Positions 19,372 to 59,876 of a stretch of 64,000 nucleotides of DNA are shown piece by piece. The notes under the pieces are model-generated. The model was not told where the DNA came from. It saw only the letters and a list, made by a program, of their open reading frames with translations, and made no database searches. The DNA comes from a virus. Location of the stretch: IMG/VR virus record IMGVR_UViG_3300047546_001659, positions 54,012 to 118,011 of that record; one strand, 5' to 3'. Position 1 is the stretch's first letter. Every line of letters begins with the position of its first letter. A program made the translations under genes and the position numbers.

Positions 19372-21727
19372 AAAAGAAACAGGCGAAGATATTCTCCGAG
19401 CTATTATGGAAAAAGGTGGTAAGGGTGGTGGTAGAGCTCAGCAAGCAGCTGCAGAGGCTCTTAATGATGCTGCTGAAAGTATTAAAGAAAATACCAGACA
19501 ACAGGCAAAAATTGGTGAAACCTTAGGTAACGTTTTTAATAATTTTAAAAATTCATTTTCCAGTGCTGGTGGTGGAGGCAGAGGTACGGGTGACGGAACA
19601 GGAGGCCTTGGTGGCCTTGGGGGCGGCGGAAGAAGAAATAATGTTCCAAATATATTATTAGATATCCTAAATGTAAATAGAAGTATCTTAAAATTTACTC
19701 ATTCTAATAATGATGTTCTTTATGATATTCTTGACGCTATTCGTGGCAATGAAAGAAGTAAAATTGAAGAACGTAGAGAAAGATCCACAAGAACTCAACC
19801 TACTGAAGGTACAGGTGCAGGAATAGGCAAAACTTTAACTGGTGCTGGTAATCTCTTTGGTGGTATGGGTAATTTATTGAGTGGATTGGGTGGCGGACTA
19901 GGTAAACTACTTGGTGGTGCAGGCATTGCAGCTTTTCTTTTATCAGAAGCTGATGCAGAAAAAATCAAAAAAAATATTGAAACCCTCTTATCAATTGGTG
20001 AGGGATATGAAAGCAAGCTTGATTTCCTAAAAGAAGGTGGAACTCTTGCTTTAATGTTATATGGAATAGGAACCGGTCTTTCTACATTTGCTATTGGACA
20101 ATTTGCAAATGTTATTACTCAATGGACTACTGGATTTTTAGGTAAAGAAAATTGGGCTGAAACAGTAAAAGATAATGTTGCTGATCTTTTAGAAATAGCT
20201 AATTTACCAAATAGTAATGTAGGTAATGTTGCTTGGCTTACAACGGCTTTGGTTGGTATAGGAACAGGGTTAGCTGTTTTTGGAATTGGTAAAGGCGTTG
20301 AGGGTGGGATTGAAGGTATAGTAAAGGGAATAGATTTCTTTACAAAAGATCAACCATTTGCCCAGAGGTTAAAAGATGAACTTGGAACTTTACTTTCAAT
20401 AGCAGATTTACCACACCAAAATGACGCAGGATGGTTAGCAGGTGCTTTGACTAAAATAGGACTTGGTTTAAGTGTGTTTGCATTAGGCAAAGGTTTAGAA
20501 GGTATTGCATATGCAGGTCAAGAAATAGTTGATTTCTTCACAGGACAACAACCCTTTGCACAAAGAATATATGATGAAGTAAAAACTCTATTATCAATTG
20601 CGGATATTCCTCATGCATCAGATGATGTAACATGGTTTGCTAATATGGCAGCAGGCATCACAGCCGGTTTGGGAGTATTTGCATTAGGAAAAGGGTTAGA
20701 AGGTGGCGTTAATGCTATAACTAGAATTGTTGATTTCTTCGCAGGTCAACAACCTTTTGCTGATAGAATTTATAATGAAGTAAAAACTTTATTATCAATT
20801 GCTGATATTCCTCACGCTTCTGAAAATGTAAATTGGTTTGCAGATGCAATGGCTGGTATAACTGCAGGACTTGGAGTGTTTGCATTAGGTAAGGGTTTAG
20901 AAGGCGGGGTCAATGCAGTAACCAAGATTATTGACTTTTTTACTGGAGATAAACCTTTTGCTCAGAGAATATATGATGAGGTTTCAAAATTATTATCAAT
21001 TACTAAAATTGACGCAGATGGCAAATCTTTCTTCTTAACGATGTCTGATATAGCTGCTGGTCTTGCAGCCTTTACTGTATCAGACTTTGCAAGTTCATTA
21101 GTTAATGTCGGAACTAGTATTTTAAATTTTATATCCGGAAAAAGTAGCCCGTTTGATAAGATTAAAGAATTAGCTAATGATGCTGATAAGTTAGAAAAAG
21201 GTGCCAATGCTTTAGAGAAAATTGCAAATGCATTGTCAACATTTTCTAATATTAAAACCGGTAATTTAGGTGATATTGATTTTGAAGGTATGGCAAAAAA
21301 TCTAGGTCAAGCCATACCATTATTAAATGCTCTCGCAAATGGTGGAACTTTATCTGCAGGTGGTTTATTCAGTTGGCTTAAATCAGATTTAGATTTTGGA
21401 AAAGGTATTCTTGATCCAAATCTAAAACTTGATCAGATGGCATCTGCAATTAGTAAGATTAACTACGTATTAGGTAGAACAACTGATATAACACCTGTTC
21501 AAGGCAATGCTCAAAACGTAAATGCAGCAACTAGACAAAACGCTGTTGATGGTGAAAGTCAAGGTAATAACATCATAGTTGTACCACCAGCAAATGGAAC
21601 TTCAAACGCTTCACGTGAACCACCTATGGTTCCTAGAAGTTCAGGGGCAGTTCAGACCGCCCCTGTTCCATCTTTATTTGATCGTCATATGTACGATAGT
21701 GCTTACTTTGGTGCTGGACACCCTTAA
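19364..21727 (+). CDS. Tail tape-measure candidate (gp29 position) built from six repeats
   Basis: 787 residues. The N-terminus is Ala/Lys-rich and helical, followed by a Gly-rich stretch (residues about 68-90) and 'VNRSILKFTHSNNDVLYDIL'. Residues 208-609 consist of six units of 66-68 residues, each starting 'LLSIADIPHAS'-like and containing 'GLGVFALGKGLEG' and 'DFF.G.QPFAQRIYDEV'. The place directly after the frameshifting gp26-like gene is where tape measures lie in most tailed phages. No peptidase or lysozyme domain is visible. Its TAA overlaps the gp32 stop from the opposite strand. Confidence 0.65.
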   Translation: MAKKETGEDILRAIMEKGGKGGGRAQQAAAEALNDAAESIKENTRQQAKIGETLGNVFNNFKNSFSSAGGGGRGTGDGTGGLGGLGGGGRRNNVPNILLDILNVNRSILKFTHSNNDVLYDILDAIRGNERSKIEERRERSTRTQPTEGTGAGIGKTLTGAGNLFGGMGNLLSGLGGGLGKLLGGAGIAAFLLSEADAEKIKKNIETLLSIGEGYESKLDFLKEGGTLALMLYGIGTGLSTFAIGQFANVITQWTTGFLGKENWAETVKDNVADLLEIANLPNSNVGNVAWLTTALVGIGTGLAVFGIGKGVEGGIEGIVKGIDFFTKDQPFAQRLKDELGTLLSIADLPHQNDAGWLAGALTKIGLGLSVFALGKGLEGIAYAGQEIVDFFTGQQPFAQRIYDEVKTLLSIADIPHASDDVTWFANMAAGITAGLGVFALGKGLEGGVNAITRIVDFFAGQQPFADRIYNEVKTLLSIADIPHASENVNWFADAMAGITAGLGVFALGKGLEGGVNAVTKIIDFFTGDKPFAQRIYDEVSKLLSITKIDADGKSFFLTMSDIAAGLAAFTVSDFASSLVNVGTSILNFISGKSSPFDKIKELANDADKLEKGANALEKIANALSTFSNIKTGNLGDIDFEGMAKNLGQAIPLLNALANGGTLSAGGLFSWLKSDLDFGKGILDPNLKLDQMASAISKINYVLGRTTDITPVQGNAQNVNAATRQNAVDGESQGNNIIVVPPANGTSNASREPPMVPRSSGAVQTAPVPSLFDRHMYDSAYFGAGHP
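19985..21190 (+). repeat. Six tandem ~67-codon repeats in the tape-measure candidate
   Basis: Unit lengths by eye are 67, 68, 66, 67, 67 and 67 residues, each beginning LL(S/E)I. Units 3-5 are most alike ('ALGKGLEG', 'QQPFAQRIYDEV'); units 1 and 6 are diverged but keep length and the starting LLSI. Constant unit size over diverged sequence suggests selection on length. Confidence 0.8.
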
Positions 21728-22650
21728 TCAGAAGCTAACTTCTTAAAGAAGCTAAGATCCTCATCGTCTTCATCCCAAGGTGCTGAAGACTCTTGCTTAG
21801 CTGCTGGGATAGAAGGTGCAGGAGCTGCACGTTGAGGTGTTGGGAAAGCTTCATCTTCATCATCAAGAGAAGGAGCCATACGCTGAGGTGAATCAGTGAG
21901 TGTTCCGAGAGCCTTCTCAAGACGCATCTTCAATTCTTCATATGACTTGAAGTGCTTTGCATCAAGAAGTTCTTGAAGTGAATGTTGCTTACCCCAGATA
22001 GCTTTAATCTGCTCATCATCATTTGCAATAGAAGATGGTGAATCAAATTCAGACTTATCATAGTTACGATAGCCTTCTACCTGACGAATCTTCAACTTAA
22101 AGTTTGCTCCATCCCAGAAATCAAAAGGATTAACAGCCTTCTCATCTTGGAATTGTGGATGCATAGCTTCGTTGATCTTATCAAAGATCTTTTTACCATA
22201 CTTAAACAAGAATACCTTGCCTTCGTTTTCTGGACGAGTAGGATCCTTAATAACAAGAATGTTAGAGAAGTATGAAAGGCGACGCTTTTGCTTGCGTACA
22301 ATTTCCTTATTTGATTCAATACCAGAGTTCCAGAGTTTTGTGTTCATCTCTGATACTGGATCTGGTTTATTGAATGTGGTTAGGCTTTTTTCGATATACC
22401 AACCACCAGGACCTTGGAACCCATGGTCCCAAATGCGTACGAACGGCATGTCTTCACCAGCTGGGGCGGGAAGAAAACGAATGATCGCATAGCCATTGCC
22501 GGCTTTGTCGACATCTGGTTTCCAGAAGCGATCGTCGTTGTTTGAACCGTCTTGTTGGGAAACTGTAGAATTGAGCTTGTTGAGCTCGGATGTGAGTTTG
22601 TCAAAGTTAGACTTACGATTTTGTTTAAGTGCTTCGAAATTAATAGTCAT
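21724..22650 (-). CDS. gp32: Single-stranded DNA-binding protein gp32, lacking the zinc cysteines
   Basis: 308 residues. 'FEALKQNRKSNFDKLTSELN' is the basic N-terminal cooperativity region. 'FWKPDVDKAGNGYAIIRFLP', 'PFVRIWDHGFQGPGGWYIEKS' and 'KLWNSG' form the OB core. The C-terminus is acidic ('PWDEDDEDLSFFKKLASD'), the partner-binding tail. T4 gp32 binds zinc with a His and three Cys; here there is no Cys at all and the usual 'CPVCE' reads 'DPVSE'. It coats ssDNA in replication and recombination. Gene order 33-59-32 is conserved from T4. Confidence 0.95.
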   Translation of the reverse strand: MTINFEALKQNRKSNFDKLTSELNKLNSTVSQQDGSNNDDRFWKPDVDKAGNGYAIIRFLPAPAGEDMPFVRIWDHGFQGPGGWYIEKSLTTFNKPDPVSEMNTKLWNSGIESNKEIVRKQKRRLSYFSNILVIKDPTRPENEGKVFLFKYGKKIFDKINEAMHPQFQDEKAVNPFDFWDGANFKLKIRQVEGYRNYDKSEFDSPSSIANDDEQIKAIWGKQHSLQELLDAKHFKSYEELKMRLEKALGTLTDSPQRMAPSLDDEDEAFPTPQRAAPAPSIPAAKQESSAPWDEDDEDLSFFKKLASD

Positions 22651-22704: not shown

Positions 22705-23280
22705 TCACGAGAATTTATTTCTCAAGATCCCACAATATTTATCTTTATTATACTCCATAAAAGGGTATAATTTTTTACAGTTCATGGCAATTTGAGGCCA
22801 TAGAACTGGGTCATTTATCTGCTTGTTCCAACTACCAAAGAATCGTACACAGTCTTGAATAATAATAAAGGATTCTTTGGTAATCTTTTTACGAACAAGC
22901 AAATTCAGTAGATAAGGATACCCACCATCGTCAGGTACCTTAAAATTCTCATCAAAATTTTCTAATAGATGATCTATATCTGATTCAAACATATATTGAA
23001 GTGTTTGCTTACGCCTCAAATAATCATTATATTTAAATTGATGATCTGTATTAAACATATCACCTATCCAAAGTTTTTGATTCTCTGAAAGATTAGCAAC
23101 CAGAAATGTCTTAGGATCTTCGTGTTTAGACAACTTATAAAACATATATTTGTCTTTGCGTGTTTCAAAAGAGTGTTCTGAAACGTTTGTTTTACCATTA
23201 TACTTTACAAAATCATATGATGGTGAAGTAAAATGATTTTTCAAAGCTACAAATAATTTATAGGCTTCAAAAGGTGTCAT
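22705..23280 (-). CDS. gp59: Replicative helicase loader gp59
   Basis: 191 residues. 'MTPFEAYKLFVALKNHFTSP', 'YDFVKYNGKTNVSE' and 'DKYMFYKLSKHEDPKTFLVANL' match gp59 ('ALK.HF', 'YD..KYNGKT', 'R.D.FFF.KL'). gp59 loads gp41 helicase onto gp32-coated DNA at forks and recombination intermediates. The start overlaps the gp33 stop by 4 bases and gp32 follows, as in T4. Confidence 0.88.
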   Translation of the reverse strand: MTPFEAYKLFVALKNHFTSPSYDFVKYNGKTNVSEHSFETRKDKYMFYKLSKHEDPKTFLVANLSENQKLWIGDMFNTDHQFKYNDYLRRKQTLQYMFESDIDHLLENFDENFKVPDDGGYPYLLNLLVRKKITKESFIIIQDCVRFFGSWNKQINDPVLWPQIAMNCKKLYPFMEYNKDKYCGILRNKFS

Positions 23281-23510
23281 ATAGGTAATCTACCCGATCT
23301 TCTTACAAGGTTAAGATTTTCAGCTTCTATTTGAATTTTTGCTTTTAATACTGTACTCTGTTTAATTAGTGAAGCAGCAGTTTCAACTTCAATGTTATTT
23401 GACTCACAGTAATGCATTACAGCGTCAAAATATGTCAAACCTTTAACTGAAGCTAACCTGTCAATTTCTTTTACAAAGTCAGCAGAGGATTTTATATTAC
23501 TTATTTTCAT
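23277..23510 (-). CDS. gp33: Late transcription coactivator gp33
   Basis: 77 residues. 'VKGLTYFDAVMHYCESNNIEVE' (family 'Y.DAV.HYCE..N.EIE'), 'AASLIKQST' and the end 'LNLVRRSGRLPI' fit gp33 of T4-like marine phages. gp33 links RNA polymerase to the sliding clamp for late promoters, which agrees with the (N)ATAAATA elements in this window. Its start overlaps the ketosynthase gene end by 14 bases, so the late coactivator is tied to the acyl-chemistry pair in one transcript. Confidence 0.85.
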   Translation of the reverse strand: MKISNIKSSADFVKEIDRLASVKGLTYFDAVMHYCESNNIEVETAASLIKQSTVLKAKIQIEAENLNLVRRSGRLPI

Positions 23511-24666
23511 CTATATTTCTTTTAAATGCAAGTGTTATGTTTGTGCCACCAAAACCAAATGAATTATTGAGAACTATATTTTGTTCAGTTTCATATGGAA
23601 CATTTGGTAGGAAAATTTCTTCTGATATGCTTTCGTCTTTTTCATCTAAATTCCAATTTGGAATTATTACACTATTTTCAAGAACAGTAATACAGGCTAA
23701 TGATTCAATAGCACCGGCTGCACCAAATAAATGTCCGTGCAATCCTTTAGTAGAGCTGATGGGAATATTCGATGTATATTTACCAAAAATATTTTCTATG
23801 CTTTTTAACTCTACAAGATCACCAATTGGTGTACCAGTTCCATGAGCATTAATATAAGTTACATCTTGAATATCAAAATCCTTTAAAGCAAGAGACATAC
23901 ATTTAACCTGGCCTTCAGTGTTTGGTTTAGTTACAGATTCAGAACCATTTGATACACCATATCCAACTATTTCACAATATATTTTTGCATTTCTTGCAAT
24001 AGCTTTATCGTAATTTTCTAGAATGAATATTACTGAACCTTCTGACATTGTAATACCATTTCTATTTTTAGAAAAGGGTTTACAATCACTACTTAGCGCA
24101 TTCATAGCTTTCCAATAGGCAAATTGCAATTCATTAATACAAGCCTCAGAACCACCAGCTGCTAGACAATCATATTCACCATAAGCAATCTTCTTATAAG
24201 CTTCACCTATAGCTGTAGAGGAAGATGAACAAGCTGTCGAATAAGTAAAAGCGGGACCTTTTAAACCATCTTTAAGAGCTATAAAGTTAGCACCCATATT
24301 AACAACAGAACAAATTAATGCAGAGGGTTTAACTTTTCCTTTTGCAAATAAAGATTTATATGACTCTTCATAAGCTATAGCACCACCACCATATCCAACA
24401 CCTAATAATATTCCCTCTGGATAATTGGAACTATCATTAATAGCATCTTTATAAGATAACCAAGCAAGCCTTGTAAACCTATCTGTAATGTTTAGATCAA
24501 ACCTATCAAAATGACTATCAACATCCTCAGAAACAACATAAGAAGATGAATCAAACATATCTTGTTTAGATCCAAATACACCTCTTATAAATGAATTTTT
24601 TACTGTGGGGTAATCATTGCCAATTGGCGTTCTGCAACCTATACCTGTAATTGCAACTCTGTTCAT
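23497..24666 (-). CDS. 3-oxoacyl-ACP synthase (KAS II / FabF-like ketosynthase)
   Basis: 389 residues, near the usual 410. All catalytic residues are present: Cys146 in 'STACSSSS', His275 in 'NAHGTGTPIGD', Lys307 in 'SSTKG' and His312 in 'GHLFGAAGAIES'. 'SFGFGGTNITLAF' closes the fold. The family condenses malonyl-ACP with an acyl thioester. It starts inside the ACP stop (ATGA, 4-base overlap), so the pair is co-translated, and it overlaps gp33 downstream. No other chain-building enzymes are in the window, so it may use host FabD/FabG, or work as a specialised ketosynthase. Function of the product is unknown. Confidence 0.93.
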   Translation of the reverse strand: MNRVAITGIGCRTPIGNDYPTVKNSFIRGVFGSKQDMFDSSSYVVSEDVDSHFDRFDLNITDRFTRLAWLSYKDAINDSSNYPEGILLGVGYGGGAIAYEESYKSLFAKGKVKPSALICSVVNMGANFIALKDGLKGPAFTYSTACSSSSTAIGEAYKKIAYGEYDCLAAGGSEACINELQFAYWKAMNALSSDCKPFSKNRNGITMSEGSVIFILENYDKAIARNAKIYCEIVGYGVSNGSESVTKPNTEGQVKCMSLALKDFDIQDVTYINAHGTGTPIGDLVELKSIENIFGKYTSNIPISSTKGLHGHLFGAAGAIESLACITVLENSVIIPNWNLDEKDESISEEIFLPNVPYETEQNIVLNNSFGFGGTNITLAFKRNIDENK

Positions 24667-24920
24667 TTATGATCCATATTATCATAAATGTAATCAACTA
24701 ATCCATTCAATGTTGTTGCAATGTCTTCTATTGTAATTGAATTTATTTCAAAAACATCTTCAAGTTCAAAAAGAATATTAATGACTTCCATAGAATCTAA
24801 TTTTTCATTTAATTCTTGAAGTCTGTTGAGAGGGAAATCACTATCTAAAACATTTATGTTAATATTATAATTTTTATTAAAGTAGGTAGCAATGGTTTCA
24901 CGGATTTCATCTTTTGTCAT
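24663..24920 (-). CDS. Acyl carrier protein
   Basis: 85 residues from ATG 24920. GAGG at 24926-24929 is 5 bases before this ATG; the adjacent ATG at 24923 is too close, and a further upstream start would run into the tmRNA. 'LNEKLDSMEVINILFELEDVF' has the ACP phosphopantetheine motif D-S-M (Ser43) and the following acidic helix II. The family carries acyl chains on a 4'-phosphopantetheine arm. The gene is followed by the ketosynthase with a 4-base overlap and is preceded by the tmRNA hairpin, so it may be made from the tmRNA promoter by read-through. Confidence 0.88.
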   Translation of the reverse strand: MTKDEIRETIATYFNKNYNININVLDSDFPLNRLQELNEKLDSMEVINILFELEDVFEINSITIEDIATTLNGLVDYIYDNMDHK

Positions 24921-24941
24921 CATAACCTCATAATAAATGGT

Positions 24942-25226
24942 GGAGAGATTCTGTTTCCAAGCTCTCTCCGGGCTCATATCAAGCAGCGAGTGCTAGATTA
25001 GGTGCAAAGTTATCGTTTGCATTTAGTTTTGTCGCTTCAGTCTCGATCTTGTCTTTACTACACCTGTCGATCCTATTTCGCCCCCATCAAAGATACAGCA
25101 AAGAAGATTTATTTACTGCTGACTCTAATCTTCTATCCAGCATCACTTCTGTATCTATGGTGGAGGCGGAGGGTATCGCACCCTCGTCCAGTATGTCTAT
25201 TCTACTAGATGTCAACAACATCAGCA
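24942..25226 (-). ncRNA. ssrA: Circularly permuted two-piece tmRNA (ssrA)
   Basis: On the minus strand the acceptor piece comes first and ends CGCCTCC-A-CCA (CCA at 25160-25158). It has a T-arm GAGGG/CCCTC (25185-25169) with loop TGCGATA. An intervening segment (25157-25086) folds into nested 8-bp stems AGATACAG/CTGTATCT and AGAAGATT/AATCTTCT. The coding piece starts GGGGGCG at 25085, pairing with CGCCTCC and giving a G3-U70 pair, the alanine identity mark. The tag frame 25020-24979 reads ANDNFAPNLALAA then TGA. A GGAGAGA/TCTCTCC hairpin (24942-24969) may close the coding piece or end transcription. It frees stalled ribosomes and tags the product for ClpXP. Exact ends are estimates. Confidence 0.95.
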
Positions 25227-25230
25227 ATTA

Positions 25231-25261
25231 TATTTATAGCATATAATTAATTAAATGTCAA
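25231..25261 (-). promoter_or_regulatory. tmRNA promoter, sigma70 and late elements combined
   Basis: Minus strand: TTGACA (25261-25256), a 17-base spacer, then TATAAA (25238-25233), an almost ideal sigma70 promoter. The -10 extends to TATAAATA (25238-25231), which is also the T4 late consensus. Start of RNA is expected near 25226. The tmRNA could thus be read both by unmodified host polymerase early and by the gp33-dependent late enzyme. Confidence 0.8.
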
Positions 25262-25269
25262 CTGTAATT

Positions 25270-25971
25270 TTATACACCATTTCTGGTTCTATATACTTCA
25301 CGCCAATGCATCAAATCTTTAACATAATAATCTCGACGATCCTCAAATACCTGAGGAGGTTCATTGTCAACCGAAATAAGAATAACAATTCTACTTACGG
25401 GAATATTGAATCTTTCTTCGTACATAATAGCATAGGCAGAAGCTTGACAGAAGTAATTTAAAATATGATCTCTGTTTTTTAATTTACGAGCTGTTTTAAA
25501 ATCTATAATTGAAAGTTTACCTTTCCATTCAGCAACACAATCAACAGTGCCAGCCATCTTTAAATAATCAGAATAAAGTCTTACTTCTTGTAAATGTATG
25601 TTATCAATATTTCTATCCAACTCAGGTTTAAGTTCATTGAAATTAATGACATCATTAAAATTATATTTGCTTACATCTATCTCATTATTGTTTAGATAGT
25701 CTTCACACAACTGATGTATACGTGTTCCACGAGTAGCAGCTTGTGTGCTTATTTTATTGGCTTCTTCATTACCAACTCTTTTACGCCAAGCTCGAATCGC
25801 ATCTTCACTCATTAATCCAGTTACAGTAGTCACAGAGGGATATAATTCACCGGAAGGAGTTTTATAATACCTTCCGGTGTCTGTATTGACTTGTTCTAAT
25901 ACATCCTCATTAAGGGTCTTTTTGAGATGAGTGAAGTGCTTGCGTTGGGCTAAAATGTCCTTGAGTAGCAT
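25270..25971 (-). CDS. PD-(D/E)XK exonuclease (RecB/Cas4-like)
   Basis: 233 residues. 'SVTTVTGLMSED', 'TRGTRIHQLCEDYL', 'MAGTVDCVAEW', 'LSIIDFKTARK' and 'YFCQASAYAIMYEE' are the PDDEXK_1 motifs: H in helix 1, D of 'GTVD', D-x-K in 'DFKT', then Q..AYA. It probably degrades or processes DNA ends. The N-terminal 20 residues overlap the PhoH gene end by 62 bases; no better start is seen. Its end abuts the tmRNA promoter. Confidence 0.8.
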   Translation of the reverse strand: MLLKDILAQRKHFTHLKKTLNEDVLEQVNTDTGRYYKTPSGELYPSVTTVTGLMSEDAIRAWRKRVGNEEANKISTQAATRGTRIHQLCEDYLNNNEIDVSKYNFNDVINFNELKPELDRNIDNIHLQEVRLYSDYLKMAGTVDCVAEWKGKLSIIDFKTARKLKNRDHILNYFCQASAYAIMYEERFNIPVSRIVILISVDNEPPQVFEDRRDYYVKDLMHWREVYRTRNGV

Positions 25972-26710
25972 TATGTAATATTCCGTTCTCTATCATATTT
26001 CTTTTAATTATAAAGTCTTTTACGAGACCGGATCTCACAATATCATTCTCGCTAAACTCAATACATGAAAAATATTTTGACATTCTATCAAGTATTTTCA
26101 TAAATCTATGAATGCCTTCTTTTTCATCATCCCATTTTAAATCAGTTTGTCTATAATCTCCACAGAAAATAATCTTAGAGTTATGTCCGACTCGGGTGAT
26201 GATTGTATTAAGTTCTTGATATGTCATATTTTGACATTCATCAACTATTATAATTGTATTGTCTAATGTAAGTCCTCTTAAGAAAGAAGATGTTTCAAAT
26301 TGTATTAGATTTTTTTGTTTAAGTATTTCGTAAGCATCGCCTCTATTATAAAGCTGAGAGCATATTGCTTGATAGGGGGCTTCATATACTTTAGATTTTT
26401 CTTTTATGGAACCGGGTAAGAAACCCATATCTCGAGAGGGGACTACTGAGCGTATTATTGTAACACTATTATATTCTCTATACTCTTCTATTTCTGATAA
26501 GGCAAGATAAAGTGATATAAATGATTTGCCTGTACCAGGAAGACCGTGAATTAAAAGATTTTTACCATTAATAAATTCTTTAAATACTTTTTCTTGATTT
26601 AATGTTTTAGGTGTTACAGTCTTTAGTTCGAGGTTATTTTTTGTTTGTTTTTGCTCCTGACGCTTTTGTTGTTTCAGTAGTCTCTTTTCTGCGCGAGATA
26701 GTCTTTCCAT
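25910..26710 (-). CDS. phoH: PhoH-like ATPase
   Basis: 266 residues from ATG 26710, which has GAGG (26720-26717) six bases upstream; a start at 26770 would overlap the next gene. Walker A is 'GLPGTGKS' (residues 56-63), Walker B 'TIIIVDECQNM', and 'CGDYRQTDL' is sensor I-like. These are PhoH features. phoH is common in marine and alphaproteobacterial T4-like phages. Its role is unsettled (RNA helicase or phosphate-linked). The N-terminus is strongly basic. Confidence 0.92.
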   Translation of the reverse strand: MERLSRAEKRLLKQQKRQEQKQTKNNLELKTVTPKTLNQEKVFKEFINGKNLLIHGLPGTGKSFISLYLALSEIEEYREYNSVTIIRSVVPSRDMGFLPGSIKEKSKVYEAPYQAICSQLYNRGDAYEILKQKNLIQFETSSFLRGLTLDNTIIIVDECQNMTYQELNTIITRVGHNSKIIFCGDYRQTDLKWDDEKEGIHRFMKILDRMSKYFSCIEFSENDIVRSGLVKDFIIKRNMIENGILHNATQGHFSPTQALHSSQKDP

Positions 26711-26723
26711 ATAGCACCTCGTG

Positions 26724-26960
26724 TTACCATGTGTTGATAGTATTATTCCTCCCACTAGCTTTTTTAACACGCTTTAAAACATCACGAAACCCTCCATCAG
26801 GTTTTCTCAAACCTAATCGAGTTGGATCTGCAATAGCAGGAGCCGATAATACTTGTTGAAGATGTGGATTGTTTTCTATGTAGGTGTCTAGTTCAGAGAT
26901 TGGCATTGAGATGTCAAACTCTTTGTTGGTCTTAGTATCGTAGAACGTATAATTAGCCAT
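26724..26960 (-). CDS. Small conserved phage protein with an FmdB-like N-terminus
   Basis: 78 residues. 'MANYTFYDTKTNKEFDISMP' and 'LDTYIENNPHLQQVLSAPAI' resemble the small protein next to phoH in T4-like marine phages, itself like the FmdB zinc-ribbon start ('YEY.C..CG..F') but without any Cys. 'GFRDVLKRVKKASG' closes it. Function unknown. Confidence 0.75.
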   Translation of the reverse strand: MANYTFYDTKTNKEFDISMPISELDTYIENNPHLQQVLSAPAIADPTRLGLRKPDGGFRDVLKRVKKASGRNNTINTW

Positions 26961-57795: not shown

Positions 57796-57872
57796 TGGTA
57801 CCCTCGACCGGATTCGAACCGGTAACACAGAGATTTTAAGTCTCTTGACTCTACCTGTTGGTCTACGAGGGC
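57796..57872 (-). tRNA. tRNA with UAA anticodon (Leu by codon), short variable arm
   Basis: 77 bases with CCA encoded. Acceptor GCCCTCG/CGAGGGT with A73, anticodon arm AGAGA-CTTAAAA-TCTCT (anticodon TAA), variable GTGTT, T-arm ACCGG-TTCGAAT-CCGGT. UUA-reading leucine tRNAs normally have a long variable arm; this one is class I. It would serve the common UUA codon of this AT-rich genome. Amino acid identity is uncertain. Confidence 0.85.
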
Positions 57873-57875
57873 AAT

Positions 57876-57952
57876 TGGCGATCTCAGGAGGATTCGAACC
57901 TCCGACCTGCGGATTAGAAATCCGTTGCTCTGTCCAGCTGAGCTATGAGACC
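57876..57952 (-). tRNA. tRNA-Arg (UCU)
   Basis: 77 bases with CCA encoded. Acceptor GGTCTCA/TGAGATC, G73, anticodon loop TTTCTAA (TCT), T-arm GGAGG-TTCGAAT-CCTCC. Reads AGA, frequent in this window's genes. Three bases from the previous tRNA. Confidence 0.93.
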
Positions 57953-59801: not shown

Positions 59802-59876
59802 TGGTTGCGGGGGATGGATTCGCACCACCGACCTTCGGATTATGAGTCCGACGCTCTTCTTCTGCGCTACCCCGCG
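59802..59876 (-). tRNA. Initiator-type tRNA-Met (CAU)
   Basis: 75 bases with CCA encoded. 5' CGCGGGG and 3' CCCCGCA leave C1-A72 unpaired, the formylation and initiator hallmark. Anticodon arm TCGGA-CTCATAA-TCCGA has two of the three usual G-C pairs. The D-loop is only AGAAGAA with no GG, and the T-loop is TGCGAAT instead of TTCGAAT. This changes both usual elbow contacts. Confidence 0.88.

What the first reader, a model, noticed from the sequence alone, without database searches (positions are those of the whole stretch)
24942..25226. Phage-encoded circularly permuted two-piece tmRNA
Acceptor piece, intervening hairpin and coding piece occur in permuted order. The acceptor halves pair with a G3-U70 alanine mark, and the tag frame reads ANDNFAPNLALAA-stop. 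This is inside a T4-like replication block, not host DNA. Phage tmRNAs are rare to my knowledge. It could rescue ribosomes on phage mRNAs cut by nucleases, replace a damaged host tmRNA, or retag host proteins. The tag ends LALAA, a ClpXP-type signal.
Basis: partly seen in the sequence, partly recalled or inferred. Interest (0 to 1): 0.9.

Follow-up and report, generated by a model that had tools for sequence, protein, structure and literature searches.

The report
Phage-encoded two-piece tmRNA gene
A marine T4-like virus of bacteria carries its own intact gene for tmRNA, the RNA that frees stuck ribosomes and tags their unfinished proteins; this kind of phage gene was already known, but the comparison shows that it sits at a fixed place in many such viruses and that some of them keep small protein genes inside the part that is cut out.

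Summary
Window 24939-25259 (minus strand) matches Rfam alpha_tmRNA at 124 bits (E 2.3e-33) and tmRNA_permuted at 111.8 bits. ARAGORN calls a permuted tmRNA with tag ANDNFAPNLALAA. The record is a 118-kb IMG/VR virus contig with T4-type genes and no detected integrase or SmpB. The gene is therefore a phage-borne two-piece tmRNA, most likely a working one that borrows host AlaRS, EF-Tu, SmpB and ClpXP.

It is not a new kind. Two-piece tmRNAs are published for Methylophilales phage Melnitz, pelagiphage Mosig and about 50 other phages.

New here, by comparison of 120 viral two-piece tmRNA stretches:
(1) A fixed slot, exonuclease - tmRNA - gp59 - gp32.
(2) A phage-specific promoter, TTGACA-N17-TATAAATA, consistent with use both early and late. 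Its box was found upstream of 1 of 155 sampled bacterial tmRNAs.
(3) A covarying processing stem in the excised segment, kept in fixed register.
(4) A compact molecule: the post-tag element is missing, and so is the PK1 region in the window's clade.
(5) In other phages, not in the window, the excised segment holds small protein genes under purifying selection.

Processing, charging and tagging remain untested.

The parts
25256..25261 (-). -35-like hexamer TTGACA of the tmRNA promoter, 17 nt from the -10/late box
   Evidence: Sequence. Among 65 distinct phage tmRNA upstream regions with a TATAAAT box, 44 have at least 5/6 of TTGACA at 15-19 nt spacing, against 4.3% of random positions. The only TTGA..N15-19..TATAAATA in the window on either strand.
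25231..25238 (-). TATAAATA box: serves as -10 and equals the T4-type late-promoter octamer; inferred transcription start about 25226
   Evidence: TATAAAT lies at a fixed distance (-73 to -82 from the CCA end, one outlier at -97, in T4-locus phages) in 43/63 T4-locus, and is present in 36/55 other phage tmRNAs, expected 0.03 per 130 nt, versus 1/155 bacterial tmRNAs. The 8th base A, not selected for, is present in 65/65.
25158..25226 (-). Acceptor piece: half of the piece-joining helix, T arm (GAGGG/CCCTC), 3' acceptor strand CGCCTCC, discriminator A, encoded CCA (ends 25158)
   Evidence: RF01849 and RF04321 alignments. T-stem compensatory changes and G3-U70 in 67/67 distinct phage sequences.
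25086..25157 (-). Intervening segment removed during maturation: processing stem (25156-25149 with 25091-25098) and inner hairpin
   Evidence: Fixed-register stem: 92.9% of cells paired in 67 distinct phage sequences, column shuffles 69.9% (max 74.3%), slid registers at most 65%. Segment folds at -13.3 kcal/mol.
24939..25085 (-). Coding piece: 5' acceptor strand GGGGGCG, D-arm region, joining helix strand, tag frame, terminal hairpin
   Evidence: RF01849 match to 24939; G1 at 25085.
24979..25020 (-). Tag reading frame: resume codon GCA 25020-25018, ANDNFAPNLALAA, stop TGA 24981-24979
   Evidence: ARAGORN. 74 distinct phage tags: 63 end LAA, 59 begin ANDN.
24942..24969 (-). 3' terminal hairpin GGAGAGA...TCTCTCC with conserved loop TTGGAAACAGAA
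   Evidence: Matches the alpha_tmRNA 3' end GGAG..UGGCAACAGAA..CUCC; folds.
25270..25971 (-). PD-(D/E)XK exonuclease (phrog_298), conserved upstream neighbour of phage two-piece tmRNAs
   Evidence: E 3.6e-73. Upstream on the same strand in 45/47 viral tmRNA loci where it was found.
22705..23280 (-). gp59 helicase loader, conserved downstream neighbour
   Evidence: PF08993/phrog_269. Downstream on the same strand in 41/41 loci where found.
21724..22650 (-). gp32 single-strand DNA-binding protein, conserved downstream neighbour
   Evidence: PF08804/phrog_224. Downstream on the same strand in 33/33 loci where found.

Best explanation
The feature is an intact, phage-owned gene for a circularly permuted two-piece tmRNA. 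Inferred working: host sigma-70 RNA polymerase, and later perhaps the T4-type late system, transcribes it from the TTGACA-N17-TATAAATA promoter, starting near 25226. The precursor folds so that the intervening stem stacks below the acceptor stem. RNase P cuts before G1 (25086|25085), and 3' processing exposes the encoded CCA at 25158. The two pieces stay together through the acceptor stem and the joining helix. Host AlaRS charges the RNA through G3-U70. With host SmpB and EF-Tu it enters ribosomes stalled on cut or unfinished mRNAs, which are plentiful during infection. It then appends Ala+ANDNFAPNLALAA, releases the ribosome, and sends the product to ClpXP. The benefit to the phage is a larger pool of free ribosomes when host ssrA transcription may be shut down. 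Shown: the anatomy, the conservation, the phage-specific promoter motif and the fixed genomic slot. Inferred: expression timing, processing, charging, tagging and benefit.
For: Covariance matches far above the gathering score and ARAGORN. In 67 distinct phage sequences the acceptor stem, G3-U70 and CCA are kept, while the T stem and processing stem vary with compensation. 74 distinct phage tags keep the ANDN start and LAA end despite very different middles, which fits a tag that is still read and recognised. Fixed slot exonuclease - tmRNA - gp59 - gp32, kept where the exonuclease is only 30-50% identical, so the gene is old in this phage group. Phage-specific promoter motif with a 17-nt spacer. 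No SmpB and no ClpP found in the record, so host partners would be needed. tmRNAs found in the same place upstream of ACP-ketoacyl synthase in all six related loci. Nearest sequences are phage tmRNAs, not the sampled bacterial ones.
Against: No expression, processing or tagging data. The molecule is reduced: about 20 nt are missing in the PK1 region (resume codon 65 nt from G1 versus 82-88 in sampled bacterial genes), and the post-tag element is missing (26 nt versus 70-77 in most bacteria), so activity could be lower or altered. The host is unknown, so fit to the host SmpB and ClpX adaptors is untested. The record is a linear contig, so SmpB could lie in an unseen part.
Confidence: 0.78

Rival explanations
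1. Decoy or inhibitor: the phage RNA binds SmpB or ribosomes and blocks host trans-translation, as proposed for the tag-less tRNA-like molecule of mycobacteriophage DS6A.
For: DS6A precedent (PMC4131195; PMC11915505). The window RNA is reduced outside the tRNA-like domain.
Against: An intact tag frame with conserved start and end is kept in nearly every one of the 120 phage stretches. A decoy needs neither tag nor stop codon.
Confidence: 0.1
2. Working tmRNA whose main benefit is not ribosome rescue but redirecting proteolysis: it tags host or phage proteins with a phage-specific tag to recycle amino acids or avoid host adaptors.
For: None of the 74 distinct phage tags equals any of 39 distinct tags from 141 bacterial genes sampled. 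Proposed for Melnitz in PMC9004378.
Against: ANDN...LAA ends are the same as host tags, so no new protease specificity is apparent. tmRNA acts on stalled ribosomes, not on chosen proteins. The host of this phage was not knowingly among the genomes sampled.
Confidence: 0.08
3. Recently captured or decaying host ssrA, or host DNA in a mis-binned contig, without function.
For: Lower RF01849 score than bacterial genes (124 versus 143-313 bits among those listed).
Against: Phage-specific promoter, conserved slot, compensatory pairs and intact tag. Closest matches are phage. No integrase found.
Confidence: 0.03

Closest known systems
Pelagibacter phage Mosig EXVC030M SsrA (MT647606)
   Same: T4-like marine phage; permuted tmRNA downstream of a PD-(D/E)XK exonuclease and upstream of gp59 and gp32; RF04321 93.6 bits
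   Different: Tag GEDNFALAA; followed by gp33-like and ThyX rather than ACP and ketoacyl synthase; only 52 nt align at 84.6% by blastn; no TATAAAT box in its upstream region
Methylophilales phage Melnitz two-piece tmRNA (PMC9004378)
   Same: Two-piece alphaproteobacterial-type tmRNA in a T4-like marine phage, in the operon next to the late-transcription coactivator
   Different: Reported glutamine riboswitch; no riboswitch match in or around the window tmRNA at E<=1
Alphaproteobacterial ssrA (RF01849; Caulobacter type)
   Same: Permuted order, G3-U70, CCA, ANDN...LAA tag, terminal hairpin with AACAGAA loop, same-register processing stem (79% paired in hosts)
   Different: Bacterial genes carry a PK1 region and usually about 42 nt more after the tag; intervening segments are 10-86 nt except one; TATAAAT box in 1 of 155
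Mycobacteriophage tmRNAs (Bxz1, Wildcat and others) and DS6A
   Same: tmRNA genes carried by phages
   Different: Unrelated phage groups, not listed as two-piece in the passages read of PMC4131195; DS6A has the tRNA-like domain only

Membership tests
Permuted tmRNA (Rfam RF04321, RF01849) | Covariance score above the curated threshold | tested here: met
   111.8 bits (gathering 47) and 124 bits (gathering 50)
Permuted tmRNA (Rfam RF04321, RF01849) | Acceptor piece precedes coding piece on one transcript strand | tested here: met
   25226-25158, then 25085-24939, minus strand
Permuted tmRNA (Rfam RF04321, RF01849) | Alanine identity: G3-U70, A73, encoded CCA | tested here: met
   Sequence; G3-U70 in 67/67 phage sequences
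Permuted tmRNA (Rfam RF04321, RF01849) | Resume codon and tag frame ending in a small hydrophobic C-terminus and stop | tested here: met
   GCA ... LALAA-TGA
Permuted tmRNA (Rfam RF04321, RF01849) | Maturation into two base-paired RNAs by removal of the intervening segment | not testable with these tools
   Covarying processing stem supports it; no RNA data
Permuted tmRNA (Rfam RF04321, RF01849) | Works with SmpB in trans-translation | not testable with these tools
   No SmpB found in the record; host SmpB would be used
Full alphaproteobacterial tmRNA fold (usual, not required by RF04321) | PK1 region between joining helix and resume codon | tested here: not met
   65 nt from G1 to resume codon versus 82-88 in bacterial genes; about 21 model positions deleted there
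Full alphaproteobacterial tmRNA fold (usual, not required by RF04321) | Structured element between tag stop and terminal hairpin | tested here: not met
   26 nt versus 70-77 in most bacteria; also short (37-46) in some small-genome species
Melnitz/Mosig-type riboswitch-controlled tmRNA | Glutamine riboswitch in or next to ssrA | tested here: not met
   No riboswitch family at E<=1 in 23300-26800

The most novel reading that the evidence does not exclude
The two-piece tmRNA is an old, standing gene of a wide group of T4-like aquatic phages, with its own combined early/late promoter, and its excised segment doubles as a slot for small protein genes. Where the nested frame stops inside the mature tmRNA (TAG in GGGGGCGAAATAG), the RNase P cut would remove the stop codon. 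Making tmRNA and making the nested protein would then be coupled: each cut would turn the nested message into a non-stop mRNA that the tmRNA itself would rescue and tag. The window has the gene, the slot and the promoter but no nested protein.
Probability: 0.3. Interest if true: 0.75.

Novelty: new member of a known kind. Interest (0 to 1): 0.45.

Why it matters
It adds a clear member to the phage two-piece tmRNAs. It also turns scattered reports into a pattern that can be tested: one syntenic slot in T4-like phages, a dedicated promoter motif, and tags that change freely in the middle but not at the ends. That argues that phages actively maintain ribosome rescue rather than carrying an occasional stolen gene. 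The small protein genes found inside the excised segment of other phages' tmRNA genes appear to be undescribed. They raise a direct question about how RNA maturation and translation share one transcript.

Tried and rejected
Glutamine riboswitch next to the tmRNA: no match at E<=1 in the window, and none at E<=5 in 1 kb around the Mosig SsrA, so the published Mosig/Melnitz riboswitch was not reproduced with Rfam 15 in that stretch. Integration-site or prophage origin: no tyrosine integrase found. Phage-encoded SmpB: none in the record or in 14 related viral records, many of them short. Nested gene in the window's own segment: an 18-codon ATG frame exists (MLDRRLESAVNKSSLLYL), but the near-identical segment of L056 (5 of 72 nt differ) breaks it with an in-frame stop, so it is taken as an RNA hairpin only. 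A strict host-specific pattern found no bacterial genome. A single global tree of phage and bacterial tmRNAs was not built, because pieces are exchanged between phages and the alignable part is short; nearest-neighbour comparison was used instead. Searches of isolate phages for two nested proteins found nothing. The genome scan was dominated by Rhizobiales, so the bacterial comparison is a sample, not a census.

Full report
What is there. On the minus strand of the window, between a PD-(D/E)XK exonuclease gene and a small acyl-carrier-like gene, lies a complete permuted tmRNA gene. Rfam alpha_tmRNA (RF01849) matches 25259-24939 over all 355 model positions with 124 bits, and tmRNA_permuted (RF04321) matches 25220-24979 with 111.8 bits. 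ARAGORN calls a permuted tmRNA with tag ANDNFAPNLALAA. The sequence shows the acceptor piece ending in CGCCTCC-A-CCA at 25158, a 72-nt intervening segment, and the coding piece starting GGGGGCG at 25085. The two acceptor strands give G3-U70. A reduced version of this signature never appeared in 60 Markov copies of the window. The ORF listed at 24663-24977 overlaps the tmRNA only because of an upstream ATG; its likely start is 24923.

Whose gene it is. The window is part of a 118,011-bp IMG/VR virus record. Neighbours are gp32, gp59, exonuclease phrog_298, PhoH and RNase H; elsewhere there are T4-type baseplate proteins and a ribonucleotide reductase. The best isolate matches to its RNase H are only about 50% identical, in several T4-like phages including Melnitz and cyanophages. 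No integrase, SmpB or ClpP was found in the record.

What is already known. Two-piece tmRNAs in phages were described in 2022: Melnitz carries one, and in a survey in which 402 phage genomes carried a tmRNA, 53 unique structures were called two-piece, 50 of them from marine or aquatic samples (PMC9004378). The 2025 tmRNA database lists 79 unique bacteriophage sequences (PMC11915505). The only blastn relative among isolate phages is Pelagibacter phage Mosig, whose SsrA is annotated.

Conservation in phages. Seventy of these carry nearby relatives of this window's replication genes. The exonuclease is upstream on the same strand in 45 of 47 cases, gp59 downstream on the same strand in 41 of 41, and gp32 in 33 of 33. 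This holds where the exonuclease is only 30-50% identical. In cyanophage P-HM2 the exonuclease is annotated directly next to gp33, so the tmRNA is not universal at the slot. All six loci encoding a relative of the neighbouring ketoacyl synthase have a tmRNA immediately upstream.

Structure and selection. In 67 distinct phage sequences every acceptor pair is kept but for one cell, with G3-U70 in all, and the two outer T-stem pairs show four standard pair types each. The intervening segment starts one nucleotide after CCA with a stem whose other side ends five nucleotides before G1. In this fixed register 92.9% of cells pair, against 69.9% (maximum 74.3% of 1000) for column shuffles and at most 65% for slid registers, with up to six pair types at one position. 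Bacterial genes show the same register at 79%. This processing stem is therefore inherited and maintained. Seventy-four distinct phage tags mostly begin ANDN (59) and end LAA (63), while the middle varies.

Compactness. From G1 to the resume codon the window has 65 nt and several of its closest relatives 62-65, against 82-88 in sampled bacterial genes; the alignment places the deletion in the PK1 region. From the stop to the AACAGAA loop, phages have 26-40 nt (window 26), most bacteria 70-77, some small-genome bacteria 37-46. The terminal hairpin itself is kept. That trans-translation tolerates loss or replacement of pseudoknots is from general knowledge of E. coli tmRNA, not tested here.

Promoter. 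Directly upstream lies TTGACA (25261-25256), 17 nt, TATAAATA (25238-25231), then about 5 nt to the acceptor piece. TATAAAT is present in 79 of 118 phage tmRNA upstream regions, at a nearly fixed distance from CCA, against an expectation of 0.03 each, and in 1 of 155 bacterial ones. In 65 distinct cases the following base is always A, which completes the T4 late octamer, and 44 have at least 5/6 of TTGACA at 15-19 nt (random 4.3%), nearly always at 17 nt. I read this as one site usable by host sigma-70 early and by the T4-type late system, an inference from motifs. It is the only such site in the window.

Exchange of pieces. The window's acceptor piece is identical over 68 nt to L046; its coding piece is 89% identical to L128, whose acceptor piece is only 80% identical. 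Its intervening segment differs at 5 of 72 nt from that of L056, whose tmRNA is otherwise distant. Segments thus appear to be swapped between phages.

Nested genes in other phages. The intervening segment ranges from 3 to 352 nt in viral loci but 10-86 nt (one of 333) in 134 bacterial genes. Several long ones contain frames under purifying selection: family A, 38-44 aa, dN/dS about 0.03-0.35 and most pairs below 0.15; family B, 35 aa, about 0.1; family D, 73 aa, 0.1; family C, 65-68 aa, about 0.4 from one pair. In families B and C (three of the four C sequences) the stop codon is the TAG inside GGGGGCGAAATAG, within the mature tmRNA. All seven family C loci found by a protein search lie in tmRNA genes, or abut the coding piece in one truncated case. 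Family D is usually free-standing (61 loci) and is nested in 7. No isolate phage matched families A or C, PHROGs gave no hit to A, C or D, and the library searches found no paper on nested frames. The window's own segment shows no such gene.

Verdict. The gene is real, phage-owned and almost certainly maintained by selection as a tmRNA. It is a new member of a known kind, with the wider pattern adding interest. What remains open is every biochemical step.

Noticed in passing
L003, L077, L103, L107 (family C); L011, L040, L073, L117, L119 (B); L007, L055, L063, L066, L085, L021, L027, L045, L069, L100 (A); L012, L118 and 7 of L316-L383 (D): Small protein-coding frames sit inside the excised intervening segment of phage two-piece tmRNA genes; dN/dS is low and Shine-Dalgarno-like sequences precede several. 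In family B and most of family C the stop codon lies inside the mature tmRNA coding piece.
   Followed up: partly
23497-24666 and 24663-24923 (minus strand): A FabF-like ketoacyl synthase (PF00109/PF02801; closest solved chains are beta-ketoacyl-ACP synthase II) and a small acyl-carrier-like protein (weak PF00550) follow the tmRNA. The pair is kept next to a tmRNA in L123-L128, and no PHROG matches the synthase.
   Followed up: partly
25231-25261: Compound promoter motif TTGACA-N17-TATAAATA in front of phage tmRNAs; its TATAAAT box is almost absent upstream of bacterial tmRNAs.
   Followed up: yes
25086-25157 versus L056; L090, L097, L125: Near-identical intervening hairpins occur in otherwise divergent phage tmRNAs, so the segment appears to be exchanged by recombination.
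   Followed up: partly
L320-L383: Family D, a ~73-aa probable membrane protein (...FNGKLIMW...MEVFGFSAWLGI), is common and free-standing in 61 viral loci but nested in the tmRNA gene in 7.
   Followed up: partly
L020 (record G016): This phage record carries both a two-piece tmRNA and a full-length ClpP protease gene (E 2.6e-83).
   Followed up: no
L002:7600-8600: The glutamine riboswitch reported for the Mosig tmRNA was not found by Rfam 15 at E<=5 in this stretch; a manA RNA is found at L002:11383-11590.
   Followed up: partly
L037, L075, L125: Divergent tags ending AMKIAA or AMKVAA (ARAGORN reads AKKAHNDNINYSAMKIAA in L037 and AKTASNDNVPYSAMKVAA in L125), with a different 3' end.
   Followed up: no
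L303: One small-genome bacterial tmRNA has a 333-nt apparent intervening segment, far outside the 10-86 nt of the other 133 sampled.
   Followed up: no
L002 (Mosig), SAR11_0010/0011: In Pelagibacter ubique the tmRNA adjoins thyX (PMC2704228), and in phage Mosig thyX lies two genes after the tmRNA; this may bear on where the phage gene came from.
   Followed up: no
57796-57952 and 59802-59876: The phage also carries tRNA-Leu(taa), tRNA-Arg(tct) and tRNA-Met(cat) genes.
   Followed up: no
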